From assembly GCA_029339505.1 (NCBI GenBank), contig JAQISU010001239.1, positions 7,619,001 through 7,683,000 on the forward strand: DNA of 64,000 nt. The letters are read 5' to 3'. This document shows positions 23,645-57,660 of this stretch, piece by piece. The notes beneath the pieces are model-generated. The model was not told the DNA's origin, searched no databases, and saw only the letters and a list, made by a program, of their open reading frames with translations. This DNA is from Unio delphinus (taxonomy: Eukaryota > Mollusca > Bivalvia > Unionida > Unionidae). Position 1 is the stretch's first letter. Each line of letters opens with the position of its first letter. The translations under genes were made by a program, and so were the position numbers.

Positions 23645-25130
<1,486 letters not shown>

Positions 25131-25135
25131 ACTGT

Positions 25136-25606
25136 TTACCACGAACTAATCATTCGGTTGAAGCATGGCATCGGTCATAGCAACATACAGTTGACTTTCA
25201 TCCTCCGTCAGTCTTCAAGTTGATTGACCACTTTTCCAAGGAGCAAGATCATGCTGAGAGTATGATTGAATGATATCGAGCAGGATTTAGACTGCATCAA
25301 AGTTTGTCAGACTTAAATGACGCCTGCAAGATTTGGTTCCAATATAGGGCAGCAATGGCACATTCATCGTATATATACGTGGTATCACAGATGATGTTGA
25401 AATTTGAAAAATATGGTAGACATAATAAACTTTGTTAACAGATAAGTATGAAGCTTATCTACTTGACATATTATCCTTTACCCTTTTTGCCTTGCACGTT
25501 TTTAACGGTGAAGTTTCGTCTTGCGCGTAATTGTCGCCGAGCATTTGTGCGCGCGCATTTGTCATCGAGGTTTTGACCTGCGCGTTAACGACGGGATACT
25601 GTTTAT
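25136..25606 (+). repeat. tandem duplicate of the MULE 3' part
   Basis: It repeats 24695-25135 with about 80-85% identity by eye: the ACGAACTAATCATTCGGTTG start, the CATCCTCCGTCAGTCTTCAAG region, GGCACATTCATC, and the ACGGTGAAGTTTCGTC/GTAATTGTCGCCGAGCA end. It encodes a second broken copy of the (N/H)SVE-x-WH...QHTVD transposase C-terminus. Confidence 0.75.
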
Positions 25607-25629: not shown

Positions 25630-25634
25630 CATAA
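25630..25634 (+). repeat. target site duplication, left
   Basis: CATAA immediately before the left TIR start AGTAGTAGAGAGGG; identical to 36991-36995. It fits integration by a retroviral-type integrase (5-6 bp). Confidence 0.75.
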
Positions 25635-25957
25635 AGTAGTAGAGAGGGTGAACAGACCAAGTTTTCAAGCCGAAATAAGCCTTCCACGGATACTTAATGT
25701 TTCAAATAAAATCTTGCATGTGTTTTTTTGTTTTGTCAAAAAACGCAGAGAGATTGTAACCGACCAAGTTTTCAAGCCGAAATAAGCCTTCCACGGGAAA
25801 AATATTTCAATTAAAATCCTGCATGTAGTTTTCGTTTTGATCTATAACAGCAGAGAGCGTGGACTGACCAAGTGAGAGCCTTCCACTGGAACATTTGGTC
25901 CAAAAAGTAGTTTGACGGAGTCAACTCGCGTGTGATTGGTTGCAATTAATTAACCAT
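25635..25957 (+). repeat. left terminal inverted repeat with three internal repeats
   Basis: It starts AGTAGTAGAGAGGGTGAACA. It contains three direct units marked by GACCAAGT at 25655, 25762 and 25866, each followed by AAGCCTTCCAC and, in the first two, TGCATGT. It ends GTGATTGGTTGCAATTAATT. It pairs with 36774-36990, which has two units. Confidence 0.9.
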
Positions 25958-25973
25958 AACGTTTAGATATAAA

Positions 25974-26920
25974 ATGTCAAAAATCGGAGAAGCACAAATA
26001 ACTAGAACAACTAGAGAAAGATTGAAAGCAATTAAAAGATGTCTCCCGGTTAGAGATTCATTCAGAGATAATTTACAACAGTTAGATTTTACTGTCGACA
26101 CTGAACAGTTGTTAAACCGAAAACTACAGCAACTGACAAAATTGTTGCCGCTACTGAAAAGGTTGGTAACGCTGCTGAAAAGATAGCAAAAGATTTAAAT
26201 CTTTAAAACCTCTTCCTGGCGATATAATAACTGCTGAAACCCCTTGTCATTTTACTGCACCTTAAATTGTTGTTGATGGATAACCTGAACTTGATGTTAT
26301 CGCACCACCTGACACACCTAAACCTGAAGAGGAGATTCCGAGAGAAAGGATATACCAAACCGATCAAATTGTTTAGAGAGATACTATGGTTGAAATTAGT
26401 AATACTTCTACGTTGGATGAATTAGCTAATTTTGCTAAGCAAACATTTTCAAAGAGAACAAGATATATAAATCCCGGATATGATAACCCAGTAAAGGATT
26501 CTGAATCCTGGTACAACAAAATACATTTGGCAAGATTTGGTGGAGATAAAACTTCACAAAAAGAGCCACATATATGAAACAAAATAGAAGATATAAAAAA
26601 GTCTACCATCATATGAGGAATCTCAACTCCCCGAAGAAATAAAATCTGTTAGAACCGTGGTAGCTCCCACACAAGGTGTAGCAGGTACGACCGGTAAAGG
26701 ATATCGTGGGGGTTTTATCATACCCTGTTCAAGAAGTATCCTCTATGATATATCACGATTAGAAGTTGTCATAGGGGGGAAATGAGTTGGAAATAATTCT
26801 CCGAAGATAATTAACGAAGCTGATAAAATCTGTCAACGACTATTTCAAGGTCGTGTAATGGATATTGGATTATATTATAGTTTTATAAATGAATTCATTG
26901 ATGAATATCACATTGATTGA
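25974..26920 (+). pseudogene. virus-like element ORF: helical/coiled-coil protein
   Basis: The first gene after the left TIR starts ATG at 25974 (MSKIGEAQITRTTRERL...) and stays open for 70 codons; it is helix-rich, with a Lys/Leu-rich end. Pieces of what seems the same protein continue in other frames: Pro-rich text near 26270-26360, 26386-26577 (TLDELANFAKQTF, WYNKIHLARFGGD), and about 26720-26920 (RVMDIGLYYSFINEF). Several shifts and stops separate them. Similar proteins open related invertebrate elements, from memory; function is unknown, possibly structural or scaffold. Confidence 0.5.
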
Positions 26921-27074
26921 TCACCACATTATATAAATAGCATCTAAATAAAATGATCATATATCGTAATCACAACAAACCAAGATCTGTTTTGTTATTC
27001 ATTCACGGTTACCTGTATACAAGGTATGTTACGGTGAGGGATTCGGTGATTTTCCCTCGGGATTGTGTACTCGA

Positions 27075-27350
27075 ATGTCTCCCACGGTATTACCAATAGT
27101 GAAACAAATAGGATCAAAAGTTATTGGTGTTATTGGTAATAAAATTGGTAGCGAGGTAGTCTTGCTGGTAGTGCATTTGATGCTGCAAAAGGTAAACTCG
27201 TTTCATTATTTCAAACAAAAAAACCGGTAAAATTACATTATACGAGAGAGATGCCACCTCAAATAGGGCAATTGTAATAAAATTGCAAAACAGAGGTTAA
27301 TTTCGTTGGCACAATCAATTATTGGTTCTGGTCTAAGAAGATTATGATTT
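27075..27350 (+). pseudogene. virus-like element small hydrophobic ORF
   Basis: ATG at 27075 opens 51 codons (MSPTVLPIVKQIGSKVIGVI...). It is Gly/Val/Ile-rich at the start and basic later. A frameshift near 27160 would lead to AFDAAKGKLVSLFQTK and REMPPQIG in another frame. It lies just before the capsid gene. No function is recognised. Confidence 0.4.
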
Positions 27351-27372
27351 AGATCGACAACTTTATAATACA

Positions 27373-28771
27373 ATGTTTAAACATGAGATAGATGATGCTT
27401 TTGATATGGATGCTCCTGTGTTAAAAAATGATTCCATCCGCGATTATTAATATTTTTCATATGACGCAATAAACCCCAATGTTAGATCACGAATTGAACT
27501 TCGATTTGATGACAAATCTAAATACTTTTTGCCGTGTGAAGCATACATCGAGGTGGAAGGACAACTAGTACAAGATGATGATGTTACATTGACTGATAAT
27601 CTTAAAACTACACAGATCGGATTAGTCAACAATGGTAAAATGGCGTTGTTTGGTAGTGCTCAATATATGATTATTTCTAACAAAATAGAATCCATCGATA
27701 ACGATATTGATGTTGTAACTACAATACTTGGTCTAGCTAGATACTCGGATGATTTTATTAAATCTGCGGGTCATTCAATGATGTTCGCGAAGGATCTCAT
27801 TGATCACGCTGATCATAATGAATTTGTTGCAAGAAAACCTCAAAAAAATGATAAATATGTTGATGTTGATACCGTTCAGGATATAATGATTAAGCAAAAT
27901 GAAAATTACAATCCAGGATTTGCAGCGCGATAACATGTTCAACCCTCAAGGTCAATTTTCGTGTACGATTCCGCTCTCTCATATATTTGGATTTTGTCGA
28001 CATGTTAGAAAGGTTATCTTTGGAGCTAGTCAGAATGTAGTTCTTATGAGAAATTCCAATGACGGTGAAGCTCTTTGGCATGCTGATGGTGTTGCTGATG
28101 ATAGGGTAAAATTATCAAAACAAGCTCTTTGAATGCCTGTTATGACCCCATCGTTGACCGTTGAACCACGATTGTTATATTTTATGAATCAATGAAGAAA
28201 AATAACTGTTGTCATGGTTGGATGTTACAAAAGCTATCGCTTCAGCCGTTGCATATAGTACATTTACTTGACAAGTTGAGTTAGCAACAAATATCTCAGC
28301 GCCGAGAGAGATTTTCATCGCGTTGCAAAATAAACATCTAGTACAAGGAGATAATAAACAGGAGCGTAGTCAGATGATATTTCATAAATTTGGTGTTAGC
28401 GATGTATCATTGCGAGTAAGTAATCAGCAAGAGCTCACGGAAAATCTGATCATCAACTACAATAACAATCAGATAGGTAGTGTGTTTCATCGTGTGTGGT
28501 CTTTTATGGGTCGTGATCAAAATATTGATACTCGACTACAAATATCACAATTGGATTTCCAAAATCTGTATCCTATCTACTACTTTTCGTTGCACATCTC
28601 GATTTATCTAGGCATTCAGTTGTCGACGTAAAATTCCAAGCTCGTGTAGGAGGATTTCCTCACGGTGAATCATTAAGGTCAATTGCGGTTATTCTCAGTG
28701 ATAAATCTATGACACTCGAAAGTGGTGGTGGAAAAATGAGAATCGTTGACGTTCCCATAGAAAACATGTAA
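27373..28771 (+). pseudogene. double-jelly-roll major capsid protein (hexon-like), broken
   Basis: The frame from ATG 27373 is interrupted by TAA at 27448 and then runs to 27933. It shows NPNVRSRIELRFD, FLPCEAYIEVEGQL, ILGLARYSDDF and NPGFAAR, patterns I associate with capsid proteins of invertebrate Polinton-like elements. From about 27935 a second frame carries FSCTIPLSHIFGFCRHVRKV and continues to 28134. A piece at 28323-28600 has an FHKFGVSDVSLRV/NLYPIYYF pattern, and the last piece, to TAA 28769-28771, has VDVKFQARVGGFP and AVILSDKSMTLESGG. At least three frameshifts and two stops separate them. About 465 codons in total, a normal size for this family. In a virus it would form the trimeric capsomers. 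Neighbouring penton and protease genes support the call. Confidence 0.75.
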
Positions 28772-28816
28772 TGTTTTCCCAAGTAGAACAATTAGATGAT
28801 ATGTTATCTAAATAAA

Positions 28817-29199
28817 ATGTCGTATGATCAAGTTAATGTCACCCTGACACCCGGTAAAGTAAAAAAAAAATACAATCGAAAAGGTCTGTTTCAAGCGGTG
28901 CAAGAATAACTTTGAAGCATGAACAGATGCCAGGTGGACCAAATAAGCTATCGCTGACACAAACTCAACTTGATCGTTTCAATAAGGCTAAAATTACAGG
29001 TAGAGGAGTTCAGTTGGATTTATCATCTGCGGCAATTTCTCATATGATCAAAACCGGTGTAATACTTACTCTTGCTGCACTAGCTCCATTAGCTCTCTTT
29101 GTTTTCAAAGCTGTCGGATTGGGTGCTGCTGTTTCAATTGGTAGCACCCTTATGAATAAAATTATGGGACCCGGATACAAAAATGGGGAAGGGGTCTGA
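28817..29199 (+). pseudogene. pX-like minor capsid/core peptide
   Basis: It begins MSYDQVNVTLTPGKVKKKY at 28817; a shift at the poly-A run (28861-28870) separates this from the 95-codon frame 28912-29199. That frame has the pattern LSLTQTQLDRFNKAKITGRGVQ, typical of small basic proteins in related elements, then a strongly hydrophobic stretch (residues about 46-75, TGVILTLAALAPLALFVFKA) and a Gly-rich end. Such hydrophobic-plus-basic proteins are compared with adenovirus minor core/pVI-type proteins; that comparison is inference. The start codon overlaps the preceding TAA region (TAAAATG). Confidence 0.55.
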
Positions 29200-29294
29200 G
29201 ACTACCCGGAAGCAGCTTCACAAGACAATACGGGACTCAACAAGGAGAATTCATATCCCCGTGGTCTCGCAAAAATTATGATCGGATAACAACA

Positions 29295-29669
29295 ATGTCA
29301 AATTTTGATTTAATCGACGCGGGATAAACAAAACTCCCAATAAAACATTGCAGAGGTGTATTCATGAAAGATCAATTACCAGAGCAACCACATATCCCAG
29401 AAACTTTAATAATTAATCTCAATGATAACACTGGGCCTGGATCTCATTGGGTCGCGTACGCGATACATCCTAAATCATTTGTTTACTTTGACTCTTATAT
29501 GTTACCTCACCCAAAAAAATTCTCAATTATATAACCGCAGACTCTAACTGATCCTCCAATATGTGGACGAGAAATTCTTAACGTGTTAACGGCGATTTCA
29601 ACAAGTTCTATACCTCAAAGGGTCGTACACGAATACACTATTGATAACTTTTTAAAGAGAAACATATAA
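29295..29669 (+). pseudogene. adenain-like cysteine protease (maturation protease)
   Basis: One frame from ATG 29295 to TAA 29667-29669 (124 codons) has stops at 29325 and near 29534. The catalytic signature of Ulp1/adenain proteases is visible: GPGSHWVAY (His), VYFDSY (Asp) and PPICG (Cys), in the right order and spacing. The N-terminal GVFMKDQLP stretch also fits. In Polinton-type viruses the enzyme cleaves capsid precursors. Length is close to the short members of the family. The two stops make it inactive; the motif residues survive, so decay is moderate. Confidence 0.8.
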
Positions 29670-29677
29670 TAGTAACA

Positions 29678-30655
29678 ATGGTAGATATTTGGGGAAGATC
29701 ATTCGCACATGGAAAATTAACTAAAGGTGTTTCCCTCGAAGAAGTAAAAAAGCTTATATCGAAGGCGTTATCAGATACATTAAATCTAGTAGGTGTTGCA
29801 CAAGATGAAATTGATATTAAGATATTAAGATCATCAAGGTAAATTGAAAACGCAGTAGACGATACCATCGCTGTTTTTTCCGATCAAAGTTAACTAAAAT
29901 CAGGTGTACTTGTGTCAACGATCACAGATAAATTATTGACGGTCACTAATAATTCAGAATCACTGAAAAAACTACGTAAAGAATATAACGAACATTTAAA
30001 TACATTTATGGGTTTACAAAGGTGTATTAATTATATTTAGGTCCCCGTAGATAATTTATTTGGAGATCAATTGGTGACCACACCATCACTTGCAACGATA
30101 AAAACCGCTATCACTGAACTGGCAGCGTTAGAGTCCACGTAAAACGATCACGTAAAACAATTTGGAAACCTTCATAGAAATATTATTGCGAGTTTTGTTT
30201 GGGAGTTCCACCCGTTGCCACACCTAAGCTTGCGGATATTAAAAAAAATCTCTTGATGATTTTAAAACAATCAGCGATGTTATCAATGACGATCTACCGA
30301 GAATTACAGAAAAACTTGATAAAATAAAAATGTCTCACGAAAAATAAAATATTGTAAATAACCTGTACAGGATCCAACACGGATCAATGAAACGTTAGAT
30401 ATAACCGCGACTGTTAAGGGTATTTATCTATTAACAATAATTTCTGATTATATATTTGATATTACGGGAAATTTTCTCCTCCCTAGTCCTATCAAACCTA
30501 TTGACTCCGTAGGTGTCAATAATACAATATCAACGACTATCGATAAGGATTCAACTGAACGATTTAAGATAAAATCTCATGATTTAGAAATGGTTAGGGA
30601 ACCAATAACATGGTGCATAGAATTTGTAGCAGATTTAAGTAAACAACTTAATTGA
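29678..30655 (+). pseudogene. fibre/spike-like structural protein
   Basis: ATG 29678 follows the protease stop by 9 bp. MVDIWGRSFAHGKLTKGVSL is reminiscent of the N-terminus of fibre-like proteins in related elements. The same phase holds from start to the TGA at 30653-30655 over about 325 codons. Stops lie at about 29840, 29890, 30036 and 30137, and compensating shifts near 30190-30370. The middle is helical and polar; the end (STERFKIKSHDLEMV, WCIEFVADLSKQL) looks beta-rich. Role as an attachment fibre is inference from position and the N-terminal pattern. Confidence 0.5.
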
Positions 30656-30676
30656 AATTTATGTATTGTAATAACA

Positions 30677-31257
30677 ATGACATCCATGACAACATCGCAG
30701 CAGTATCGCTATGATCAAGTCAGAGAAATTTCAACAGCGGTTAAAAGCACTCACCATGGAATACCAATCAAAGATAAAAAAAAATATCGAAGAAACATCA
30801 ACATCATCGATGTCACAGTGTACTCGGTATCAGGTATAATCACCGGTGCAGGTATAATACTCTCTTCGGTGACAATGGTTGCACCGAACGCTGTTCCAAT
30901 TTGTATATCCGCGGCGACAGCAATCGCGGGGTAATCTCAATCATAACAAAACAAATATCATCGTGTTCCCAGCGTAGGTTACACGATTATACGATTACAT
31001 TTCATACGGTGTCAACCACGTACTCGCAATTGTCCTCGATGATATCGTCGTCGTTCGACAACACATTAATATCCTATGATGAGTTCTCGAAAATGGTTCA
31101 TGTTTATGATTCCACGATGTCAAAATTAGAAAAAGACAAGTATAACAATGTCACAAACATCGTCACAAGAACTACTTCAACGAATAGTGGAAAATACAGC
31201 CCCCGGGAAAAACCATTTGATATCAATAACATCGAGAAAACCCGAATTCAACATTGA
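30677..31257 (+). pseudogene. two-transmembrane small protein
   Basis: ATG 30677 opens an 85-codon frame with a basic segment (HHGIPIKDKKKYRRN) and then two hydrophobic stretches (VTVYSVSGIITGAGIILSSV; APNAVPICISAATAIAG). After a shift near 30925 a second frame (30901-31257) starts with VISIITKQI and continues into a Ser/Thr-rich, helical tail (DEFSKMVHVYDSTMSKLEKDKY). This is a membrane hairpin plus coiled-coil design, vaguely like SLATT-type proteins. Its last codons overlap the start of the next gene at 31148. Membrane role inferred only. Confidence 0.55.
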
Positions 31258-31640
31258 ATTTCCAACTCCAATCCCAGCAAGCGAGATAGCGTTAACTCTA
31301 CTTAGATTATATTATAGTTGGCCCAATATCTGATCAGATCCATTGGCACGAATATTACCCTATAACCGTTTTGTGATCGCGTATAAAATTAAACCTGATG
31401 GTGAACCAGATTGGCAGACAATATATCTTCCAAAGGGTGCTTATGACATCGAGGATATCAACGATGAGATCCAGCGTAGAATAAAATCAATTACTGGATC
31501 AGAATCACAAATTGAGTTAACTGTTCATGAACCATCGTTATCAACCGCATTTGAAATAAAATCTCCCGAGTACTCCGCAGACATATATAACAGCTCGATA
31601 AGAACAGTATTAGGATGGCCAGACAAATCACCGTATGAAC
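31148..31640 (+). pseudogene. penton-like minor capsid protein, N-terminal half
   Basis: From ATG 31148 one frame is open apart from a TGA at about 31331. The pattern EFNIEFPTPI, then ALTLLRLYYSWPNI, RFVIAYK, IYLPKGAYDIEDINDEI and SIRTVLGW matches the N-terminal jelly-roll of penton-like proteins in related elements ('IxIPxGxYxIxDIN...SIRxxLGF'). After LGW the expected second half does not follow; it appears about 700 bp downstream (32349-32748). In a virion this protein would form the pentameric vertices. Confidence 0.65.
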
Positions 31641-32348
31641 AACTAGAACAACCCGTAGAAGAAAAACAACCAGCCAGAAAAACAATCCAGAACTTAAAAG
31701 ATCTGATTTTACTACGGGTAAAAAATCTCCGTATATTGAATTTAAAGGTCGTGAGGTTAATACGAGACGATTAAATATTTTGAACAATTATGTGGATAAA
31801 GAGTTTATATATGTATATAGTTATAAAGAAAACGTAGAAATCCCTATATGGAATATTGATACTAATAGATCCTTTGCTTCCGTGATTACGCTCACAACCG
31901 TTTACACATGTTTGGAATCGTAAACTTCTTACTGGATTTTTTGAAATCATCAGCAGCGAATATAACAATCAACTACAACTATTAATATTTTATTTTATCG
32001 AATATCTCGATGATATAACAACTCCACGATATAAATTTATAAACAAATTGAAACATTAAATCAACTTAAAGATGATATAGAGTATCTCAACGGGAGATTT
32101 GTTCAGATGATAGAGAGAGATATAAGTTGGAGGCTAAGAAAAAATTTCTAGCAGCGAATTTATTAACAGAACACACACTACCCAATTATAAATTTCCAGG
32201 ATATAGTGTTCCCGATATGAAACAATCTATAAATGGTGTCATCGATGATAATTTCAAAAAAATTCACGATACGTGGACAACTCTAAACATAGATGATCTC
32301 ACTACTGAGTACTACAATAAAATAATTGCAGCGAGAAAAAATATCTGA
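31640..32348 (+). pseudogene. virus-like element ORF lying between penton halves, unrecognised
   Basis: Pieces of a separate helix-rich protein occur in several frames: a basic stretch with GREVNTRRLNILNNYVD and NIDTNRSF (31690-31870), then EIISSEYNNQLQLLIFYFIE (31930-32060), then 32127-32348 (KKFLAANLLTEH, INGVIDDNFKKIHDTW, ending AARKNI-stop). Several shifts separate them. Composition and order suggest a gene of about 230 codons. Proteins of this look occur in related elements as independent genes, from memory; function unknown. Confidence 0.45.
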
Positions 32349-32748
32349 TAGTTTTCTTAGATATAATAACTCTCCAGACGGATCACATAGATATGTCTCA
32401 CTGAACAACGTCGACATAACATTAACTATTGCGATACATCTTATTTGTGATATTGTATTAGGAAGTTATAGCGAGAATACATCGTCATCGACGAGCGCGG
32501 ATCAAGGATATATCTTATACAGGTTTTCCCCGAATGTTTCCCCAGGAAGCTTACTTATACAAACACCGATCAATTCTATATATTTGGAAACGGTTAATGA
32601 TTTGATATCAAGAATGAATTTCAGATTAGTTGATCAGGATTTTTACTTCATTGATCTTTCAGGGGAACAACTACATATTACCCTTGTTGTAAATGATTTT
32701 CGTCTTAATATTTTCCAAATTAGAACATCAATAATTAGAAATATGTAA
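32349..32748 (+). pseudogene. penton-like minor capsid protein, C-terminal half
   Basis: The frame 32326-32748 contains NNVDITLTIAIHLICDIVLG, FSPNVSPGSLLIQTPINSIY and LVDQDFYFIDLSGEQLHITL. These match the second domain of penton-like proteins, whose usual pattern is xI.(h)xHCdx(I/V)xGS, F.P.v.PG..i...P...iY, and (V/L)xDQDGxxxDfrGExLtI. No break inside this half. It is separated from its N-terminal half by the unrelated frame-broken segment 31640-32348. Confidence 0.65.
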
Positions 32749-32774
32749 TTAGAAATTGCTAGCAATTTCCAATA

Positions 32775-33018
32775 ATGTATCAACATGCACGAGTATTCGT
32801 TTACGACAAAGATAAACTTGAAGACGCAATTAGAAGGGCTTTCAGTGGAATCGTTAACGACTCCCACGTTAGCGTTGAGAATCTTATTGATTCCAGAGAA
32901 GACTTCAAGTTGAACTCGGCATAGATAGACTCGCCAATGAGCAATTTCATCAAGTGCAACAACTACACAGAGATATCATAACGATGATTAGATGTAATCA
33001 TGATCAAATAATAACATA
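32775..33018 (+). pseudogene. virus-like element small ORF
   Basis: ATG 32775 opens 49 codons (MYQHARVFVYDKDKLEDAIR...) to TAG at 32922. A shift just before it leads into RLANEQFHQVQQLHRDIITM and a stop at about 33018. Short, helical, charged; no recognised family. Confidence 0.4.
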
Positions 33019-33019
33019 A

Positions 33020-33273
33020 TCTCCATTTCATGTATCCCCGTTAATAAAATCAAGAGAATATTAACGTTAAAAAATTCACAATGAAAAAGCCAGCAAATTC
33101 GACGCGTGATCGTAATTTTCGAGTATGATTTTTTATCAACATTTTCTAATTTCCTTGATTGTCGAGTGTGATTTTCGATTATATTTTCGATTCCGATTAT
33201 TTTTGTGCAGGAAAAAAATATATACGCAATAAGAGCTCCAAATTATCTTACTTCCTCCGATGAAGAAATAATA
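33020..33273. other. intergenic stretch inside the virus-like element
   Basis: AT-rich, with three related GATTTTCGA/AATTTTCGA motifs within about 100 bp (33112-33200). It could hold promoter elements for the downstream coiled-coil gene; no gene seen. Confidence 0.35.
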
Positions 33274-33839
33274 ATGTCGCTGAGAGGTATTCGATGACCC
33301 ATTGAAGTTTCTAACGAGTTCAAGATTGGATTAAGGCGACTATATAAATTATGGTCGAAAAATATAATATCGGTGACAACGAAGGGAACTCTCACCGAAT
33401 ACAAAGAAGCAAAACAGCGACAACGTGAGGCTAAGCGAGAACTTCAATTAGAGATCTCCGAGCTAAGCAATGAAGTTGTTGTATTACAGAGTAAACGAGA
33501 TCAACTTAGGATCACCGCGGAATCGTCTAACAAAAACCTTCAGGAGGAGATATCCACGATGAGAGAGAATAACCTCGAGGATGAAAAAATACTTGACGAG
33601 CTAGCGGCGAAGAAAACTAAATTAACAACAAGGATTGAGAACCGAAGAAAAGGTTGAAAAACTACAAACAATATGACACAGCTAGTGAGAATTATAGCGC
33701 GCTAGAGGAAAACTTGAGCACGTATACGGGAATATAAAACTCAATAAGGAACTTGCAACTGGGTTGGGAATAAAAAAAAACTACTTCCAGATCTCCCAAA
33801 GGAATCCGTTGTGGTTTACCAACCAAGACTTTTTAAATG
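33274..33839 (+). pseudogene. coiled-coil protein of the virus-like element
   Basis: The frame starts at ATG 33274 (MSLRGIR, then TGA at 33295) and is open through 33657. It forms a long coiled coil: TEYKEAKQRQREAKRELQLE, heptad-rich LQSKRDQLRITAESSNKNL, and DELAAKKTKLTTRIE. A shift near 33650 continues the helix (NYKQYDTASENYSALEENLS), and a further piece ends PKESVVVYQPRLF-stop at 33836-33839. About 185 codons. Possibly a scaffold or terminal-protein-like gene given its place before the polymerase, but that is speculation. Confidence 0.55.
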
Positions 33840-33859
33840 ATGAAATTGCTAGCAATGAA

Positions 33860-34235
33860 TATTGTTTCACGTGGAACTATTCACAGTTCTCAAATACTTG
33901 TCGTACTCTTTCACAGCTGATTTTTTTTCGCTGTTCCTCATTAAATACTTCCCCGATGGATTTTAAAAGTTTTTTATCATCGTTGACACGGTAATAAATT
34001 ATTGTTCAGGACTGGTTGCATTGTGAGAATTTCGATAAAGGATATGATCGCCTTCCCGAGGGAGAATTTTCATCACGCGGTACTCCGGCTGATACGTGGG
34101 AAAACTTAGTCGTCGCGCCGAGAGTATTTTTTTATATTCCATGTTGAGATACTCGCTGGTGAATATGCTAATATAGTGGTGGTGTTTTACGCCGTCGAGT
34201 TCGGTTTTCAATTCGGTGATATTTTCGTCGTTCAT
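33860..34235 (-). pseudogene. minus-strand ORF of the virus-like element, unrecognised
   Basis: A minus frame from ATG 34235 to 33999 encodes 78 residues (MNDENITELKTELDGVKHHH..., later FPTYQPEYRVMKILP). On the same strand another frame at about 33880-33995 reads KLLKSIGEVFNEEQRKKISC, a plausible helical continuation after a shift. No family recognised. Confidence 0.4.
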
Positions 34236-34633
34236 TTTTGTGTTATTATATATGAAATTATTTATTTAATTTTAAAATTCGTTTTATAATTGATGATTGT
34301 ACAATCTGATATAGAAAAAATTCCATGGAAGTTAATTTTTTCCGCTGATTTTAATTTCATTGACAGCGATATTTTTTCAAGAGCAATGTCAGTTTTTATC
34401 ATCGAATATTTAATTTCATTGATATAATAGTTAGCCAATGTTATAAATTCAACACATCGAAGAATTTTAAATCAAGGATAAGTTTTTCAATATTTTCTAG
34501 CCTACGGGTAGTCTGATTTACAAAAATACAATATTACTGCGTAGGGAAAATCTGTTAAGGAAAATGGAGCGTCGATAAATGATGTCGCTGCATTCAAAAG
34601 AATCTCCAATCAAAATTTTTTATCATAATTCTC
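34236..34633. other. non-coding or heavily decayed DNA inside the virus-like element
   Basis: AT-rich with stops in all frames. It may be the eroded 5' part of the polymerase gene or a promoter region. Confidence 0.35.
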
Positions 34634-35470
34634 ATGCGTCCAGTATTCCCGAGAACCCGAACAGTAAAATATTATCACGAGGATATATTTGACCTTATAT
34701 ATGAGTTAAATAGAACAAATCCTATATCAGTGTGGTTGTGTACCAGCATTGATGATAATGTATATGATCAGTTTGTGTTGACTAACGGAGATTTATATCG
34801 AACTGAAAAACTTCAAATGGAAATGAATAATCTCGCGTTAAGGTATACTGATAATCAATCGGCGATTTCCGCCGATGAGATTACGAAAAATTGTTTCACG
34901 GTGCCATCAGTTGCAGTTCATTTTGCCAGAGAGAGAAATTCGTGGTCCCCGACCAGATATGATTTCACTGAAGATGTTCAAGATAGCTGCGTATAATTCG
35001 GTCACGGTGGACTGGAACACAACATATAATGTAAACGATATGATGTCCGTGGACATGGCAGCATGTTACCCAGAAAGTTTTCTCGGGTACGGAGAGTGTC
35101 ACGAATATTTTGAGCGGTTCGGTCACCCCACACATATGATGACAAAGAGAACTGTTAACGGACCATTACCCGACTTTGATCTTTTTGGATTTGCCAAGAT
35201 GACATCGTTTAACTAGCTTAGGAACTCCACGATATATTTTATGTGTGGTTCGGAAGACATTTCGTGGAGAAGAAATGGGCCCCAATAGTATTATTGAGAT
35301 TCATGCTCGACGAGGGAATATTAACCTCGTGGACTGTATCTACGGTGATAGTTTTATACACGAAACAAACTAAGGTTTGGTTACCGACACCAGGAGATTG
35401 TGATGAACGTCAAGCGAAGGATCTAGGAAGAAAAATAATCTGAAAATTTACTCAAGGTGGATCAAAAAAT
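34634..35470 (+). pseudogene. DNA polymerase (PolB-like) fragment
   Basis: Pieces in three frames: 34634-34996 (YYHEDIFDLIYELNR, VWLCTSIDD), about 34960-35216 (VTVDWNTTYNVNDMMSVDMA, then ACYPESFLG, YFERFGHPTH, VNGPLPDFD), and 35243-35443 (WFGRHFVEKKWAPIVLLRFM, KQTKVWLPTPGD), ending KFTQGG near 35460. SVDMAACYP fits PolB motif A (DxxxxYP). I associate ACYPxSFxG...ERFGHPTH and KFTQGG with a replicative polymerase of invertebrate Polinton-like elements, from memory. Motif B and the DTD/TDS motif C are absent: the sequence breaks off where an internal deletion brings in the integrase start. Confidence 0.55.
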
Positions 35471-35511
35471 GATTGTAAACGAAAAACGACTATGAATGAC
35501 GCATACTGAAT

Positions 35512-35664
35512 CTACGCTGGACGGCGCAGATAAATTTGCCATATAGCCTGTTTCGACAACCAATCAGCAGCTGTTTCCCAGGTTACCTTAGCAGCGTTGG
35601 CGAGTTTATCTACCGCAGACTTAACCATATAGTATCCGGTTGGAGAATAATAAATTACTTCCAT
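35512..35664 (-). pseudogene. retroviral-type integrase, N-terminal fragment
   Basis: The minus frame from ATG 35664 to a stop at 35512-35514 (50 residues) reads MEVIYYSPTGYYMVKSAVDK, then LANAAKVTWETAADWLSKQA, then IWQIYL. This closely resembles the N-terminus of the integrases of invertebrate Polinton-like elements (YYxPxGYxxGxxAIxKLAxAAKV...AxxWLxxQAxWQIYLP). The catalytic DDE core and chromodomain are missing; the polymerase fragment lies immediately beyond, tail to tail. The ATG follows the PLA2-like stop by 22 bp, so the two were probably co-oriented neighbours. Confidence 0.7.
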
Positions 35665-35686
35665 ATTAAATACCAGCGCCAAACAA

Positions 35687-36100
35687 CTATTTACCTTTCA
35701 TTGCAATTTTTATTATCCATGATGTTAAATTTTCCTTGAATGTATTATTTTGGATGGAATCCAACGCGTGGATCAATCTTACATCTGCAAGATGACGTTG
35801 TTCGAGGTCATCGCTTAGACCTGGTCTTATATTATTTTGGTTATCAAGTCTGATGTCTAATCGTGTCCCCGGTCCACAATAACTATATCCTGGAAGGTGT
35901 TTTTCTCCTTGATACTTCGCCCATGGTGTCCCTCGGAGTTTTGTTAACTTGGAGGCGATATCACCACCGCTTTTTAAACAAATTTATATTTTTTCTATTT
36001 CACATTTGCCGGTAACGGCCTCTCTGTTATTTTTCGTGGTAACAGTTATTAGATCAAGTGTTGGTGTACGTGTCCTACATTTCACACAATATAAATCCAT
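35687..36100 (-). pseudogene. zinc-ribbon plus PLA2-like protein
   Basis: One minus frame from ATG 36100 to TAG 35687-35689 (137 codons) is broken only by a TAA after residue 39. The first 35 residues look like a small zinc-ribbon (MDLYCVKCRTRTPT...VTTKNNREAVTGKCEI), though the second CxxC is reduced to a single Cys. Residues about 70-100 contain LPGYSYCGPGTRLD, the calcium-loop motif of parvovirus-type phospholipase A2. The catalytic His-Asp of the following helix (usually HDxxY) is not found; a small deletion seems to have removed it. In related viruses the PLA2 domain helps membrane escape. The start is 21 bp from the divergent ATPase start. Confidence 0.7.
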
Positions 36101-36121
36101 AATATTATTTAGTTTTATATA
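36101..36121. promoter_or_regulatory. divergent intergenic region, PLA2-like/ATPase
   Basis: Only 21 bp, TA-rich (TTTAGTTTTATATA-like), separate the two divergent start codons, so a shared compact bidirectional promoter is likely. Inference from layout. Confidence 0.35.
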
Positions 36122-36777
36122 ATGGAAATTATTGATTTCTCCCCGTTAAAGAAAAAAACAACAGTGAAACATCATCCGATGTTACCAGATTCTATCAGAA
36201 TGATTATCATCGGACCTTGAGCGAGTAGTAAAACACAGTTGCTGCTTACGCTGATAATGAAATATACGAAATGGGATAGATTATATTTAGTTGCTCCGAG
36301 CCTAGATGATCAACATTGTTATCAAGTGTTCAGATATTATAACGAGAGTGCTTAAGAGATCGCCGGAGAGGATATTATTGAATTTATCACAGATATCAAC
36401 GACGCGCCATCAATGGAAGATTTTGATGGGAGTATTAACAGTCTTGTATACGACGATGTGATGCTAGATAAACATAAAAATCAGCTCGGATATTTTCTCG
36501 AGGACGACACAAAAACTCTGAGGTGATATATGTCACTCAACGATACACATAAATTCCAAAAGTGATCCGAGACAACTGCAATTGTTTATGTATGTTTAAC
36601 GACGTTGACAATCATACTTTTAAAAATATTTGGCAAACCTGGTGTAGTGATATGGATTTTAATCAATTTAAACATTTCTTTAGCGGTGCTCAAGCAACAC
36701 CTCATGGATTTATAACGATACATTTATCGGATCCAAGGACACGATATCGAATAGGATTGGATACAATTTATGGTTAA
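36122..36777 (+). pseudogene. A32/FtsK-type packaging ATPase
   Basis: From ATG 36122 (MEIIDFSPLKKKTTVKHHPM) the frame reaches a Walker A region, MIIIGP-stop-ASSKTQLLLTL, where TGA (36218-36220) replaces a residue of the P-loop. It then shows DRLYLVAPSLD and a Walker B-like SLVYDDVMLD. Further stops occur near 36353, 36525 and 36563, with a shift into 36562-36777 (IRDNCNCLCMF, QATPHGFITIHL). Around 215 codons, typical for these DNA-packaging ATPases. The final stop codon lies inside the right TIR. Such enzymes pump DNA into the capsid. Confidence 0.8.
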
Positions 36778-36990
36778 TTCATTGCGACCAATCACCCACG
36801 AGTTGTCTCAACAACTTTTTTAGGACCAAAATTGAAAAAATAAATGTTCCCGTGGAAGGCTTTAACTTGGTCTGTCCCCGTTCTCTGTTGTTATAGATGA
36901 AAACAAAAAATACATGCAGGATTTTTATTGAAATCGCGTGGAAGGTTTGTTTTGGCTTGAAAACTTGGTCGGTTCACCCTCTCGACTACT
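36774..36990 (-). repeat. right terminal inverted repeat with two internal repeats
   Basis: The reverse complement starts AGTAGTCGAGAGGGTGAACC and matches the left TIR, including GACCAAGT units (CTTGGTC at 36866 and 36964), CCTTCCACG and TGATTGG near the inner end. It is about 105 bp shorter than the left repeat, which has one more unit. Confidence 0.9.
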
Positions 36991-36995
36991 CATAA
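36991..36995 (+). repeat. target site duplication, right
   Basis: CATAA, identical to 25630-25634. Confidence 0.75.
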
Positions 36996-37099: not shown

Positions 37100-38090
37100 G
37101 GTCGAAATAGGTGAGTTATAGAAGCACCCTTGAGTTAGATCGCTTTGATCTTTTTATAGGATCTTTGAGTATTTCGTTCCAAGTACGTGGTCTCTGGAAC
37201 GCAAATGAAAGCTGTCCAAATAACTTCGTTTTAACAGTGACTACATTAAGAAAACGGGTGTCACACGAGAAGTGTAAGTTTCGAGATGATACATACACAT
37301 AGATGATGTCAGATAGATATAGTGAGCTGGATCCAGTCTATGAAATTTAGAATAGGTAACCGATTTTGTGTTTGATTCTGTATCGAACGTTTAACTATTG
37401 AAGGTTACATAGCAGGGGAAAGGTGTGTTCAGTTCAAATTTCTCCAGAAGATTCTGGCACGAACTCGATAGTAATGAATTATAGTAGTCCAGTCTTGAAA
37501 GTACTTAGGAGCACACAATTATTTTAGTGACATCAACCCAACAAACAATGCGAATGGCACTAATGCGTCTCAGCCCCAAATATGCAGCTTTGAATATGTT
37601 CATTATATGTTGGTGTAATAAGAACGTGCCTTTCAGAGTGACACCAAGCTACTTACTGACTGTATGAGTTTAATGTAGGAATTGCTTTGACTTACTGTTG
37701 GATGTACGTGATGTGAATAAGAAAGGATTTGTGTGGTCCATTACACCCCTGATGGTAGTTTAAGCTTCGGTTGCATAGATAGATTGGTATATTTGAGTGT
37801 CATCAGCGTACAAATGGTTCGACACCTGATGTATACGTATGACACTTGAGAGCGGCTGAATGTATAGAATCAAGTGAACAGGGCGGAGACTAGAGCCCTG
37901 TGGAACACCAAAAGATAAATTAACTGGGCAGGAACGTTTTCATTTATTGACACAAGTTGTGTCCTATTGACTAAGTAGGACTTGATCAATACTCCTCTCT
38001 GAAGAACATTTTCAGTAATAAGGCGACGCGGATATTCCAAGCTTACATTACTAAGAAGACTATTTAAATTCAGATGTTAATGAGAGAATA
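37100..38090 (-). mobile_element. L2/CR1-like LINE reverse transcriptase, 5'-truncated relic
   Basis: On the minus strand the RT core is readable in broken frames: GVPQGSS near 37895, then YADDTQIY (YADD codons at 37799-37810, catalytic Asp pair), a GVTLKGTFLLHQHI-type stretch, LDYYNSLLSS near 37475, and a C-terminal segment (37116-37298) with the usual FxxxxPRTWNEI pattern. Shifts and a 130-bp deletion near 37990 inactivate it. Its upstream part is repeated at 40459-40793 as part of the segmental duplication. Confidence 0.75.
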
Positions 38091-38172
38091 TTCTCTTTAA
38101 GACAACAGTTAAACATTGTTTATATTATAAAAACAAATAATTCGTTAATTTACATCTAATATTCCTCTTAAG

Positions 38173-38499
38173 ATGCAGGAACACAATGCAAAATCGCATA
38201 ACAGTGACAATCAGGGTTCGATGTTACATGCCGGGTGCAGTGGTAAAAATATCAAACCGGTCGACACGTATTCGATGACAAGCCCTTCTTTACATAAAGA
38301 TAGAGATACTCAACGAGGGATACAGAAAGCGAAGCCTCACGGTTTCATTCGTTGTAAGTCAGCACCAGTTGCTACAAGAATGCCTATTCGGAACGATTAC
38401 ATTATATACGAAAGAAGAATGAAATATCGCTATTTGCCAACAAAAATCTTTGATAGAATGTCTCCAGACACAACCATGACAGGGACAGAGGCAAGAGAA
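38173..38499 (+). CDS. duplicate glycohydrolase first exon 1' (in-frame deletion)
   Basis: ATG 38173 opens the same N-terminal sequence as the main gene (MQEHNAKSHNSDNQGSM...) and ends at the same donor (GAGAA|GTAAGT). The exon is 109 codons, exactly 231 bp shorter than exon 1, phase 0 kept. The deletion, at an ATGACAGG-like microhomology, removes residues about 103-179: the start of the catalytic fold with GDAIG and the candidate catalytic Glu. It could splice to exon 2' (39431) or exon 2/3 of the main gene and give an isoform without hydrolase activity, or be a dead partial copy. Confidence 0.55.
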
Positions 38500-39430
38500 G
38501 TAAGTATCAGGTTAACTAAATCTAGACATAAGTGTGTCTAACGGTCTCACAATATGTTTTGTACGATGAGTCATATATAAGCTTAGCGAGTAATCCATCT
38601 GTTACCAATTTGTCTTCATACCAAGAACTTTATATATTCTCCATCTATAGCCTTAAAAACTTTTGGATTGTTTGCACTTGAGGTAAGAATGATTCTGGTT
38701 CCTTTAATGACTCAAACGCTTAATGGCCAATATCAGTCATACTGAAAGTAGTAAATACAAAGTTACAGCATAATAACTTGAGTCCTTCACCTTATGCAGT
38801 TTATGTGTTTTCCATATGTTCTGCCCCTAGAATAAAAACATATTATATCGATTGCAGCCTCAAAATATCAAGGCGATTTTAACTCAGACTGAAATATGCG
38901 AATATGATCTCTGCATACTAATTTGTGTGCATTATTATCAGCAGTTACCAACATTTGATTAGATATCGTGTTCTAAAGAACCGATGTCAAGGTCACTCTA
39001 ATTAAAAGAAGTTAATTTTTTCTTCTTTTTGTCCCAACATTTAGCAATCTATAACTTGGATTTTTAGAAATAGGGGTTCGGAATATTTATCGTTCTCAGT
39101 ACTCAGTGGTCAACGATACTATAGCCGGTCATAACATAAACATTAGTTTTATTGGAAGAGTGTTCACATAAATTTAACGTTTTGTTTACATAATACCATT
39201 TATGAGTTGTTGCCATTGAAACATTATCTTGTGTCAAGCTTTAACTTTGATACAATTTATTGTACTAATTGTATAAATCCATTAATATAGATACACCGTC
39301 ATATTATCAATTTTAAGTCTGAGCTATAAATAATATTTAAATGTCTGTTTAGAAAATTACTTCTGCGTTTTGGCAGAATTAAGTATCTGATTTCACTGTA
39401 AAAAAAGAGAAATTTTCGAATCATTTGTAG

Positions 39431-39568
39431 TTCTATGGTTATAAAGATCTCTGTCTGGAGGACAAGCGAAAGGACCGTCACAGAATTCGATGGGAAACCG
39501 GTGAATGGACCGATGATTCTGACCAAATGATTCTTATCATGCAATCACTAATTGAAAACGGAGGAAAG
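39431..39568 (+). CDS. duplicate glycohydrolase exon 2'
   Basis: 46 codons, open, with splice sites kept (TTTGTAG|TTC...AAAG|GTAAAT). Encodes the metal-site motif GEWTDDSDQMILIMQSLIEN. It differs from exon 2 by few changes, mostly before the motif (DRHRIRWETG against DSHRSRWKTG). The intact frame suggests a recent duplication or retained use. Confidence 0.6.
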
Positions 39569-39588
39569 GTAAATTTGTTATTGTTATC

Positions 39589-39711
<123 letters not shown>

Positions 39712-40340: not shown

Positions 40341-40458
40341 TCATCAGTTCCTTACACTTGTTTCTATCATGTGCCAATGTCTGTGTCTCCACAAAACCTT
40401 TTCCTGATCGATTATGTGATGTTGTCCCTCACACTTTTTTCTATGCCTACCTCTACCT

Positions 40459-40793
40459 CAAGTGAACATGGTCGAGACTAGAGCCCTGTGGAACACCAAA
40501 ATATAAATTAACTGGGAAGGAACGTTTTCATTTATTGACACACGTGGTGTCCTATAAACTAAGTAGGACTTGATCAATAGTAAGGATGTGTCATGAATAC
40601 CAGATCCATCATGGGAACCGTGGAGTAGTATATTATGGTATATTGTGTCAAAGTCAAGGTTTACAATGAGTGTAATCTTTTCACTCTGGAGAGAGGAGAG
40701 AATGTCGTTAACTCCTCTCTGAAGAACATTTTCAGTAATAAGGCGACGGGGATATTCCAACTTTACATTGCGAAAAAGACTATTTGAATTCAA
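40459..40793 (-). mobile_element. L2/CR1-like LINE RT fragment (copy B)
   Basis: The 111-codon minus frame carries ITENVLQRGVNDILSSLQSE, then KITLIVNLDFDTIYHNIL and SYLVYRTPRVSINENVPSQL. This is the RT finger/palm pattern of L2/CR1-type LINEs (…DLSAAFDTIDHxIL…SYLxxRTQ-V-xxN). A shift lies in the GVPQG motif. It includes about 130 bp missing from copy A. Confidence 0.75.
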
Positions 40794-42539
40794 ATGTTTA
40801 TGAGAATATTCTCTTTAAGACAACAGTTAAACAATGCTTATATTATAAAAACAAATGATTCATTTAATTTACATCTTATATTCCTCTTAAGATGCAGGAA
40901 CACAATGCAAAATCGCATAACAGTGACAATCAGGGTTCGATGTTACATGCCGGGTGCGGTGGTAAAAATATCAAACCGGTCGACACGTATTCGATGACAA
41001 GCCCTTCTTTACATAAAGATAGAGATACTCAACGAGGGATACAGGAAGCGAAGCCTCACGGTTTCATTCGTTGTACGTCAGCACCAGTTGCTACAAGAAT
41101 GCCTATTCGGAACGATTGCGACATTATAGACGAAAGAAGAATGAAATATCGCTATTTGCCAACAAAAAACTTTGATAGAATGTCTCCGGACATGACCATG
41201 CCAGTTCATCGTTCCAGTAAACATCTAAGCGAATGGGAGGTCGAAGAATTAAACTGGCAACAACAACAGCGAGAAAGACATGACCATAAAGTTGCAGCCT
41301 CGATATATGGGAGAAAAATAAGAGCACTTGATACTGGTTATAGGGAAGACGGCATAAGAGAGAAAATTATAGCCACTATATATGGTAACTGTGTCGGAGA
41401 TGCCATTGGCTTGCTGACGGAGTTTATGACAGGAAAAGAGGCAAGAGAAGTAAGTATCAGGTCAACTAAATCTAGACATAAGTGTGTCTCGCGGTCTCAC
41501 AAGATGTTTTGTACGATGAGTCATATATAAGCTTAGCGAGTAATCCATCTGTTACCAATTTGTCTTCATGCCAAGAACTTTATCTGTTCTCCATCTATAG
41601 CTTTAAAAACTTTTGGATTATTTGCACTTTAGGTAAGAATGATCCTGGTAGCTTTTATGACTCAAACGATCTATGGCCAATATCAGTCATATTGAAAGTA
41701 GTAAATACAAAGTTACAGCATAATAACTTGAGTCCTTCACCCTATGCAGTTTATGTGTTTTCCATATGTTCTGCCCCTAGAATAAAAGCATATTATATCG
41801 ATTGCAGCCTCAAAATGTCAAGGCGATTTTAACTCGGACTGAAATATGCAAATATGATCTTTACATACTAATTTGTGTGCACTATTATCTGCAGTTACCA
41901 ACATTTGATTAGATATCGTGTTTAAAAGAGCCGATTTCAAGGTCACTCTAATGAAAAGAAGTTAATTTTTTCTTCCTTCTGATCCAACATTTCAGCTATC
42001 TATAACTTGGATTATTAAACATAGGGGTTCGGAATATTTATCGTTCTCAGTGGTCAACAATACTACAGCCGGTCATAACATAACATCAACATTATTCCTC
42101 TTGGAAGAGTGTTCACATAAATTTAACGTTTTGTTTACATAATACCATTTATGAGTTGTTGCCATTGAAACATTATCTTGTGTCAAGCTTTAACTTTGAT
42201 ACAATTTATTGTACTAATTGTATAAATCCATTAATATAGATACACCGTCATATTATCAATTTTAAGTCTGAGCTATAAATAATATTTAAATGTCTGTTTA
42301 GAAAATTACTTCTGCGTTTTGGCAGAATTAAGTATCTGATTTCACTGTAAAAAAGAGACATTTTCGAATCATTTGTAGTTCTATGGTTATAAAGATCTCT
42401 GTCTGGAGGACAAGCGAAATGACAGTCACAGAAGTCGATGGAAAACCGGTGAATGGACCGATGATTCTGACCAAATGATTCTTATCATGCAATCACTGAT
42501 TGAAAACGGAGGAAAGGTAAAATTGTTATTGTTATCATT

Positions 42540-42542
<3 letters not shown>
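40459..42542 (+). repeat. segmental duplication, copy B
   Basis: Direct duplicate of 37873-39590 and the more complete of the two; contains the LINE fragment and functional exons 1 and 2. Confidence 0.9.
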
Positions 42543-42617
<75 letters not shown>

Positions 42618-51543: not shown

Positions 51544-52539
51544 ACTGGACAAAGGGCGAATTATCAGACGTGCATTCCTTTCAATTCAGCTGTCATTTAA
51601 TTTAAAACTTGTGATTGTACTTCATAGCGATCCCCATACAATATTATATTACCTCTCAACGTATTATATCATATGGGCTTTTAACGTTTACGTAGATTTT
51701 ACAAAATTAGAAAGAATATATAACAACTAGTTGTTCTCAAACTGCAAAACAGCAACTGATCACATTTGGCTCAAGTCACCTTTATAGACAGACCATTTTA
51801 TTTCATACTAACAATTCCAATCTACCATCTAATATGGCCTCTATAGTTAAAAATCGATAAAATTTAAAGTTTAGCTCCAATGAATTTTGGCACAATTTTC
51901 TCATCCAGTAGCTTTTCAAACTGGCTTTTTTGACTGTACATATGACAACGATCCGCCATCAACTACTGATATCGATGCTAACAAAATAAACACTTTCAAA
52001 AGCTTCTAATAAAACGTGCAACAGAATATGGACAAATGTGATAGATCATATACTGGCTTGAACGATTTCTTGTTTGAAAGTATTATTCCAATCCACCAGA
52101 AAATATGGCCACTATTCCTGACAACCATTAAATGAACAATAAAAAAAACAAATCCTTTCAAACCATCGTATACAATTCGACCAAATTTAATTGGAAACAC
52201 CTTGACAGATTTATTTAATACTTGTTCACATAAGGCCAATCCACCGTCATAGTATGTTTACTATCGCTGTTAAAAGAACAAAATATTAAATGATCTCTTC
52301 TCAAATTGACCTCGATAAAATCGGGCCGAGTAGAAGAAACGTAGTATTAAGAGTATTTAATATCCTACATATTGAGGATGATTTTCTAAGATAAACGGAC
52401 GACGTTAGTAAAATAGTATAATTTCTATAATAAAAAAAACTATATAGAAAATGATAAAATTTGACTCTGAAAGGATTTGCCCAAAGTCATTGTTTTCTTT
52501 TTTCTACTATACTTTGCTATAATATAAGTCTTCATTTAT
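51544..52539. other. 3' flank of the glycohydrolase gene
   Basis: Probable 3' UTR and flank; AATAAA at 51985-51990 is a candidate poly(A) signal. No other feature. Confidence 0.45.
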
Positions 52540-53440: not shown

Positions 53441-54040
53441 AAATATTTACATTGAGATAGGCAACTTAAAAAACAAATATGATTATATTGCCAATGTTTT
53501 AAATGCAGATAGTAAAGCTAAATTTCTTCGAAGAAATGTAGTTAATGAAGACAAATAACACAATTCAAATCTGCATTTGCTTCACTGATAAATTATTAAC
53601 TATAATTTTAATTGAAAACAAAGAATCTATAGCGAAACGCATAGTATATGCGTGCGATTGTACATTACTCATCCTTTATTGATTTGAAAGCTTTAAGGGC
53701 AAAGGGAAATGCAAATACTCTCATAATACCCGCGTCAATAGCAGTCGTGTTATGCTAAAACCTGTTTTAAGTTTGAAACACCTAAGGGCATTGGGAGTTA
53801 ACAGTCAGGTTTTAAATATATGCGTCAATGTTGTCATGAATACTTTGGTCAGTACAGGGACGATGTCGATGGTAAGACAATGATTTAAACTAATTATGAA
53901 CTAAAAATGAAAAGTTCGTCATACCTTTCCTAAATCGGATTTTGGAAACTAATGCTTTGACTTATGAAGATAATTGTAATTACAGTCTAATTCGTTTCGA
54001 TATATTAAAGCTAATATGTTTTGGTAACATAACCGATGCG
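53441..54040. other. non-coding, no feature seen
   Basis: AT-rich stretch with no recognised element. Confidence 0.45.

Positions 54041-57587: not shown

Positions 57588-57658
<71 letters not shown>
57588..57658. repeat. (TA)n microsatellite
   Basis: About 35 TA units directly at the left edge of the inverted-repeat copy. Confidence 0.95.

Positions 57659-57659
<1 letters not shown>

Positions 57660-57660
<1 letters not shown>

What the first reader, a model, noticed from the sequence alone, without database searches (positions are those of the whole stretch)
25630..36995. Complete-ended fossil of a Polinton/adintovirus-like virus in an animal genome
Both TIRs, a matching 5-bp duplication and at least six recognisable virus genes (capsid, penton, protease, ATPase, integrase, PolB-like) lie in one 11.36-kb unit. 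The gene set fits Polinton-type viruses, but the polymerase motif set (ACYPxSF, ERFGHPTH), the PLA2-like gene and the small size suggest a less-described lineage. This is the strongest candidate for an undescribed system in the window.
Basis: partly seen in the sequence, partly recalled or inferred. Interest (0 to 1): 0.9.

Follow-up and report, generated by a model that had tools for sequence, protein, structure and literature searches.

The report
Broken Polinton-like virus, polymerase-helicase lineage
A stretch of a 2.5-billion-base eukaryotic genome is a decayed, partly deleted copy of a virus that once integrated there; relatives in the same genome appear to use a polymerase-like domain fused to a helicase where such viruses usually have a standard DNA polymerase, a design that the papers I saw describe from viruses and elements of microbes.

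Summary
The element is real: window 25635-36990, inverted repeats of 326 and 223 bp, ends AGTAGT//ACTACT, duplication CATAA. It is a decayed Polinton-like provirus. Capsid, ATPase and PLA2 pieces match frames of host-genome relatives that pass Pfam cut-offs; integrase and protease frames fall just short; the penton is conserved but has no profile.

The small size is no lineage trait. Four copies on one contig share host flanks: one insertion, spread by segmental duplication. The window copy lost 2,074 bp that sister copy B keeps, cutting off the ends of the polymerase-like gene and the integrase. Five related copies with paired repeats are 15.6-16.0 kb.

The 'PolB-like' gene is unusual. In one relative a 943-aa frame carries like motifs followed by a superfamily-1 helicase domain, with no PolB profile match: the layout described for Tlr1-like pPolB-helicase fusions. 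Canonical PolB frames (mostly 1,361-1,362 aa) occur elsewhere in the same genome. Palm identity rests on motifs only; the host is shown to be a eukaryote, not an animal. The fossil is ordinary; its lineage is a notable variant.

The parts
25630..25634 (.). Target-site duplication CATAA, left
25635..25960 (+). Left terminal inverted repeat, 326 bp, with an internal ~107-bp duplication
27451..28771 (+). Remains of the double-jelly-roll major capsid gene, four pieces in three frames (27451-27933, 27890-28132, 28272-28631, 28529-28771)
   Evidence: DJR-like_dom 1.2e-6 on 27890-28129; main matches of all four pieces lie in one 481-aa frame of L011, DJR-like_dom 1.2e-19
28858..29199 (+). Small conserved open frame, unidentified; likely virion protein (inference from position)
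   Evidence: tblastn matches in relatives, 48-59%; no Pfam family
29295..29669 (+). Adenain-like cysteine protease remains; 125 codons with 3 stops counted, the last terminal
   Evidence: Peptidase_C5 0.0081, below cut-off; relative frame 7.1e-4, below cut-off; stops
31130..32748 (+). Penton candidate remains, several frames
   Evidence: pieces 31334, 32076 and 32326 all match one 428-aa frame of L011; no profile hit
33298..33657 (+). Coiled-coil-like piece (by eye), unidentified; matches twice in sister copy B
34583..35492 (+). Front part of the replication gene: motif-A-like DMAACYPESF, FGHPTH; frame changes; helicase part deleted
   Evidence: 37-67% to L010/L012/L019; relatives' frames carry AAA_19 downstream
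35492..35493 (.). Deletion point: 2,074 bp present here in sister copy B are absent
35512..35697 (-). Integrase N-terminal remnant, 61 aa; catalytic core lost
   Evidence: 66% to L010; L010 frame hits rve 1.2e-7, just below cut-off
35687..35983 (-). Parvovirus-type PLA2 remnant; keeps the YxxGPG loop, no HDxxY
   Evidence: Phospholip_A2_4 0.0017, below cut-off; relative 1.2e-10; no HDxxY in three frames
36122..36777 (+). A32-type packaging ATPase remains; 3 stops in its first frame, then a frame change
   Evidence: relatives Pox_A32 5.3e-14 and 1.8e-13
36768..36990 (-). Right terminal inverted repeat, 223 bp
36991..36995 (.). Target-site duplication CATAA, right

Best explanation
A single old insertion of a Polinton-like double-jelly-roll virus or element, now inert. 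It works like a Polinton; I do not file it as a Polinton in the strict sense, since two tested features (6-bp duplication, exonuclease-bearing PolB) are not met. When active, capsid, penton and protease genes would build a particle, the A32 ATPase would pack the DNA, the PLA2 would help membrane passage, and the retroviral-type integrase would insert the linear DNA with a 5-bp stagger; replication would use a protein-primed-type polymerase palm fused to a superfamily-1 helicase. Shown: ends, 5-bp duplication, gene homologies, a helicase domain in the same frame as the polymerase-like motifs in relatives, one insertion spread by segmental duplication, the 2,074-bp deletion in the window lineage. 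Inferred: palm identity and activity, protein priming, particle formation, PLA2 role.
For: Ends and duplication. Gene pieces match frames in relatives, which hit DJR-like_dom 1.2e-19, Phospholip_A2_4 1.2e-10, rve 1.2e-7, Pox_A32 up to 5.3e-14, Peptidase_C5 7e-4. L019 943-aa frame: YP motif from residue 227, FGHPTH at 255, Walker A from 560, AAA_19 3.5e-13, Dda-like helicase PHROG 1e-13, a PDB helicase chain at 1.3e-3. Sister copy B keeps AAA_19 1.7e-10 in the stretch that the window lost. Shared flanks of the four C67 copies. 5-bp duplications also at C41 (CCTGG) and C140 (TATGT). Known fusion layout TP-vOTU-palm-S1H without exonuclease: PMC11071308, passages read.
Against: No PolB profile match for the palm part in Pfam or PHROGs; no OTU family among the hits; motifs B and C not located with the patterns used. 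Penton has no profile support. Integrase and protease profiles fall just under cut-offs, and two other frames from the integrase region (L019 192 aa, sister B 142 aa) gave no rve hit. The left duplication of B and B' reads TATGA against CATAA on the right. No sequence of a named Polinton or Tlr1 element could be compared.
Confidence: 0.8

Rival explanations
1. An ordinary Polinton/adintovirus (Eupolintoviridae) with a standard exonuclease-bearing pPolB, misread because the gene is divergent.
For: Capsid, integrase, protease, PLA2 and A32 set fits; YP and FGHPTH motifs look polymerase-like; standard PolB frames exist in the same genome.
Against: The frame continues into a superfamily-1 helicase; the 150 PF03175 rows and the 150 palm-piece rows, both capped lists, share no place when compared by eye; Pfam gave no PolB match to these frames.
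Confidence: 0.12
2. A short non-autonomous element that moved in this shortened form with help from full-length relatives.
For: Short copies of near-equal size with paired repeats exist elsewhere: C277 and C186, about 8.45 kb each.
Against: Sister copy B of the same insertion still holds the 2,074 bp that the window lacks, while copy A' has nearly the window's spacing, so the deletion came after insertion.
Confidence: 0.03
3. By descent a polinton-like virus or Tlr1-type element with an RVE integrase, not a Polinton. This does not exclude the best explanation, which leaves descent open.
For: The helicase fusion is described for PLVs, Tlr1 and transpovirons, and Tlr1 also has an RVE integrase.
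Against: Adenain-like protease remains (below cut-off), while the protease is absent in Tlr (PMC4028283, passages); a PLA2 of the kind reported for Polintons. Not settled without a capsid tree.
Confidence: 0.3

Closest known systems
Polinton/Maverick elements (Eupolintoviridae, formerly Adintoviridae; renaming)
   Same: Capsid, A32 ATPase, integrase and protease remains, inverted repeats, (AGT)2//(ACT)2 ends as in vertebrate Mavericks (PMC8097293, section 7 read); PLA2 reported in some Polintons; the 15.6-16.0 kb relatives fit the 12.7-24.6 kb range of intact vertebrate Mavericks.
   Different: 5-bp instead of 6-bp duplication; the replication gene is fused to a superfamily-1 helicase and does not match PolB profiles; the window copy is a deleted fossil.
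Tlr1-like pPolB-S1H fusion elements (Tlr1, many polinton-like viruses, transpovirons)
   Same: Polymerase-like motifs followed by a superfamily-1 helicase in one frame; Tlr1 also has an RVE integrase.
   Different: Adenain-like protease remains, absent in Tlr; PLA2; at least 150 palm-piece matches (reporting limit) in a 2.5-Gb genome. vOTU domain not found.
Bidnaviridae
   Same: They took their PolB from Polintons (PMC4061559, passages read).
   Different: Parvovirus-type capsid and superfamily-3 helicase; this element has a double-jelly-roll capsid and a superfamily-1 helicase.

Membership tests
Polinton/Maverick | Terminal inverted repeats with Maverick end motif | tested here: met
   motif from PMC8097293
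Polinton/Maverick | 6-bp target-site duplication | tested here: not met
   5 bp in 3 of 3 insertions with both ends read: C67, C41, C140; 6 bp is the criterion for intact vertebrate Mavericks
Polinton/Maverick | Double-jelly-roll major capsid protein | tested here: met
Polinton/Maverick | Penton (single jelly roll) | tested here: inconclusive
   conserved frame, no profile; low-confidence fold without use
Polinton/Maverick | A32/FtsK-type packaging ATPase | tested here: met
   relatives' frames; motifs in window
Polinton/Maverick | Adenovirus-type protease | tested here: inconclusive
   Peptidase_C5 below cut-off in window piece and relative
Polinton/Maverick | RVE integrase | tested here: inconclusive
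   one relative rve 32.4 bits, cut-off 32.6; two other frames from that region no hit; window keeps only the N-terminus
Polinton/Maverick | Protein-primed PolB with exonuclease | tested here: not met
   no PolB profile; helicase fusion instead
Adintovirus as defined in PMC11071296 (section 16 read) | PolB with N-terminal OTU-like domain; integrase with chromodomain; capsid recognisable by BLASTP | tested here: inconclusive
   no OTU or chromodomain hit in the frames scanned; no reference capsids at hand
Tlr1-like pPolB-S1H fusion | Superfamily-1 helicase C-terminal to polymerase-like part in one protein | tested here: met
   L019 943-aa and L012 496-aa frames; met in relatives, deleted in the window copy, helicase part kept in sister B
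Tlr1-like pPolB-S1H fusion | Protein-primed palm with TPR1/TPR2, vOTU upstream | not tested

The most novel reading that the evidence does not exclude
A large lineage of integrating viruses in an animal genome that joins Polinton-type virion genes, an adenain-like protease, PLA2 and a retroviral-type integrase (5-bp duplications) with an exonuclease-less polymerase-helicase fusion replicase, living beside canonical-PolB elements in the same genome: a direct link between Polintons and the Tlr1/PLV branch.
Probability: 0.3. Interest if true: 0.62.

Novelty: new variant of a known kind. Interest (0 to 1): 0.45.

Why it matters
The fossil itself is ordinary. If the lineage reading holds, one host genome contains many copies of two replication designs (canonical PolB and polymerase-helicase fusion) on what may be related virus backbones, which would let the proposed exchange of exonuclease for helicase in these viruses be traced with datable insertions.

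Tried and rejected
Rejected: small size as a lineage mark (deletion); PLA2 as a novelty; movement of this copy in shortened form (sister B keeps the missing part). No relatives by 6 protein scans and 2 pattern scans of IMG/VR; the one pattern hit, L001, is chance. A tblastn of the capsid piece against the phage collection found nothing. AlphaFold2 on two single pieces gave mean pLDDT 43 and 32, and the BFVD search with the first had no match at E <= 0.001: no use. PDB sequence searches with 6 window pieces gave no meaningful match. NCBIfam, and PHROGs on the window's pieces, gave nothing useful. Pfam hits to unrelated families from E 0.014 upward show the noise level, so the window's protease hit (0.0081) is weak by itself. 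The motif shuffles used patterns written after reading the window and lean towards it. Host-genome searches with the integrase, PLA2 and ATPase pieces did not complete.
Full report
What is there. The element spans 25635-36990. Its left inverted repeat is 326 bp with an internal ~107-bp duplication, its right one 223 bp; blastn between them gives 2e-51, and 200 aligned sites of the inner part differ by K2P 0.125. The ends read AGTAGT and ACTACT, the commonest end motif of intact vertebrate Mavericks (PMC8097293, section 7 read). CATAA stands on both sides. A 37-nt pattern written from the two ends is found only there in the window and in none of 100 shuffles. The interior holds 25 open stretches of at least 80 aa against a mean of 7.5 and maximum of 14 in 200 shuffles, and 6 to 10 in four equal stretches of the flanks.

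Evidence from the window alone. Of 32 different element pieces given to Pfam, one passed its cut-off: DJR-like_dom, 1.2e-6, in 27890-28129. PLA2 (0.0017) and adenovirus protease (0.0081) were below cut-off, and unrelated families appear from 0.014 upward. Among 14 different host-flank pieces the only family above cut-off was ADP-ribosylglycohydrolase. Ordered A32 motifs occur in 1 of 1000 shuffles and ordered protease motifs in 2 of 1000, and neither in the rest of the window, with patterns chosen after reading the window.

The host genome. The window is C67:7619001-7683000 of a 2.505-Gb assembly in 1246 contigs. The left repeat has 48 matches (302 candidates, 40 scored, so a lower bound). By my reading of that table 11 sets of paired repeats exist: four on C67, five of 15.6-16.0 kb (C140, C41, C33, C44, C106) and two of about 8.45 kb (C277, C186). 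In the eight of these sites of which I fetched parts (one of them copy B on C67), every part matched the element's genes; no repeat without cargo was seen, but most of the 48 matches were not looked at. The 80-aa capsid piece has 150 matches, the reporting limit, from 26,423 first-look candidates; by my count 16 of the 150 lie in frames of 480-489 aa. The palm-like piece has 150 matches, the limit, from 29,488 candidates.

One insertion, copied with its surroundings. Besides the window copy, C67 holds A' (6099948), B (7155441) and B' (6612733). The four share host DNA outside the element: left flank 99.2% (window against A'), 99.8% (B against B') and 89.7% (window against B), each over about 1,500 bases; right flank 99.6% over 1,486 bases, 99.7% over only 380 bases, and 98.6% over 736 bases with further pieces at 95.8 and 98.4%. 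The right duplication reads CATAA in all four; the left reads CATAA in the window and A' but TATGA in B and B'. I take them as segmental duplicates of one insertion. Why the left and right flanks of window and B differ so unequally is unexplained. B lacks 4,504 bp of the window's element (25987-30490, capsid to protease); the window lacks 2,074 bp that B keeps at 35492/35493. In other copies the interval between the polymerase-like and integrase pieces is about 2.6 kb (L010, L012; L019). Copy A' has nearly the window's spacing from the palm piece to the right end (1,832 against 1,777 bp; B 3,910). So the deletion followed insertion and the window/B duplication, and the small size is no trait of the lineage.

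Gene identities through relatives. The window's pieces fall into frames of relatives: the four capsid pieces into a 481-aa frame (DJR-like_dom 1.2e-19), protease into a 145-aa frame (Peptidase_C5 7.1e-4, 19.7 bits, cut-off 21.3), three penton-candidate pieces into a 428-aa frame (no family), PLA2 into 132 aa (1.2e-10), integrase into 325 aa (rve 1.2e-7, 32.4 bits, cut-off 32.6; the match starts a few codons before the frame), ATPase into 228 aa (Pox_A32 5.3e-14 and 1.8e-13). Two other frames from the integrase region, 192 aa of L019 and 142 aa of sister B, gave no rve hit. These frames were scanned as they stand.

The replication gene. In L019 one 943-aa frame contains a like YP motif (from residue 227), FGHPTH at 255 and a Walker A (from 560). 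Residues 556-675 match AAA_19 at 3.5e-13; PHROGs gives Dda-like helicase and exonuclease V at 1e-13; the PDB gives an ATP-dependent DNA helicase (5fhd) at 1.3e-3 and chains named PIF1 only from 0.054. Neither this frame (Pfam up to E 1, PHROGs up to 0.1) nor the 718-aa frame of L010 (0.01 and 0.1) matches a PolB profile. Sister copy B has AAA_19 1.7e-10 and a sub-cut-off UvrD_C_2 (0.0029) in the stretch that the window lost, so the inserted element carried the helicase. PMC11071308 (abstract and passages read) describes such proteins, Tlr1-like helicases or pPolB-S1H fusions, in polinton-like viruses, Tlr1 and transpovirons: palm kept, exonuclease lost, superfamily-1 helicase added. The palm here is supported by motifs only. 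Separately, PF03175 gives 150 rows (3,467 candidates, 75 scored; 0 of 14 control genomes), on frames mostly of 1,361-1,362 aa, with profile positions 8-218 and 208-365. Compared by eye row by row, none of these places coincides with the palm-piece rows. Both lists are truncated, so this is no census, and I did not test whether those PolB frames lie in elements with capsid genes.

Integration. The duplication is 5 bp in three of three insertions with both ends read: CATAA (C67), CCTGG (C41), TATGT (C140); intact vertebrate Mavericks are reported with 6 bp. C41 and C140 begin AGCAGCAG and end CTGCTGCT; the right ends of C106, C44 and C33 also read CTGCTGCT, those of C277 and C186 CTACTACT. The triplet pattern is kept while its third base varies.

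Gene order. In the window, capsid and polymerase-like genes lie on the same strand; so they do in C48, C229 and C176. In C41 and C140, where both halves were read, the structural block is turned the other way. Two layouts thus exist in this genome. Varied layouts are also known among vertebrate Mavericks.

Novelty. PLA2 in Polintons is in print (PMC4642659, one passage). Adintoviruses of 13.3-14.6 kb, two of the three near-complete, are in print (PMC8363768, passages). The main adintovirus paper is not held. Host identity was not established; an intron-split ADP-ribosylglycohydrolase gene beside the element shows a eukaryote.

Noticed in passing
window 37870-39694 and 40458-42611: Duplicated (about 92-94%) ADP-ribosylglycohydrolase gene pieces in separate exons (Pfam 3e-7 in each copy), right beside the provirus.
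   Followed up: partly
window 24698-25605: A 439-bp direct tandem duplication ends about 25 bp before the provirus.
   Followed up: no
window 52525-53452 and 57640-58605: Inverted pair of repeats, 80% alike over 981 alignment columns, unidentified.
   Followed up: no
G000 C277:990161-998615 and C186:3234398-3242843: Two copies of nearly equal length (8,455 and 8,446 bp) with paired repeats on different contigs: candidate for a short form that moved as such.
   Followed up: partly
L020:3062-3325 and 3619-3975: The coiled-coil-like piece (window 33298-33657) matches twice in sister copy B.
   Followed up: no
flanks of the C67 copies: Window and B copies differ 10% in the left flank but about 1.4% in the nearest right flank; cause unknown.
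   Followed up: no
G000, PF03175 search: Many canonical PolB frames of the same length (1,361-1,362 aa), nearly all without stops, suggest recent spread of another element family; identity between them was not computed.
   Followed up: no
L012:5362-5988: Weak, sub-cut-off HNH hit (0.019) just downstream of the helicase part; PMC11071308 mentions HNH endonucleases at the C-terminus of some Tlr1-like helicases.
   Followed up: no
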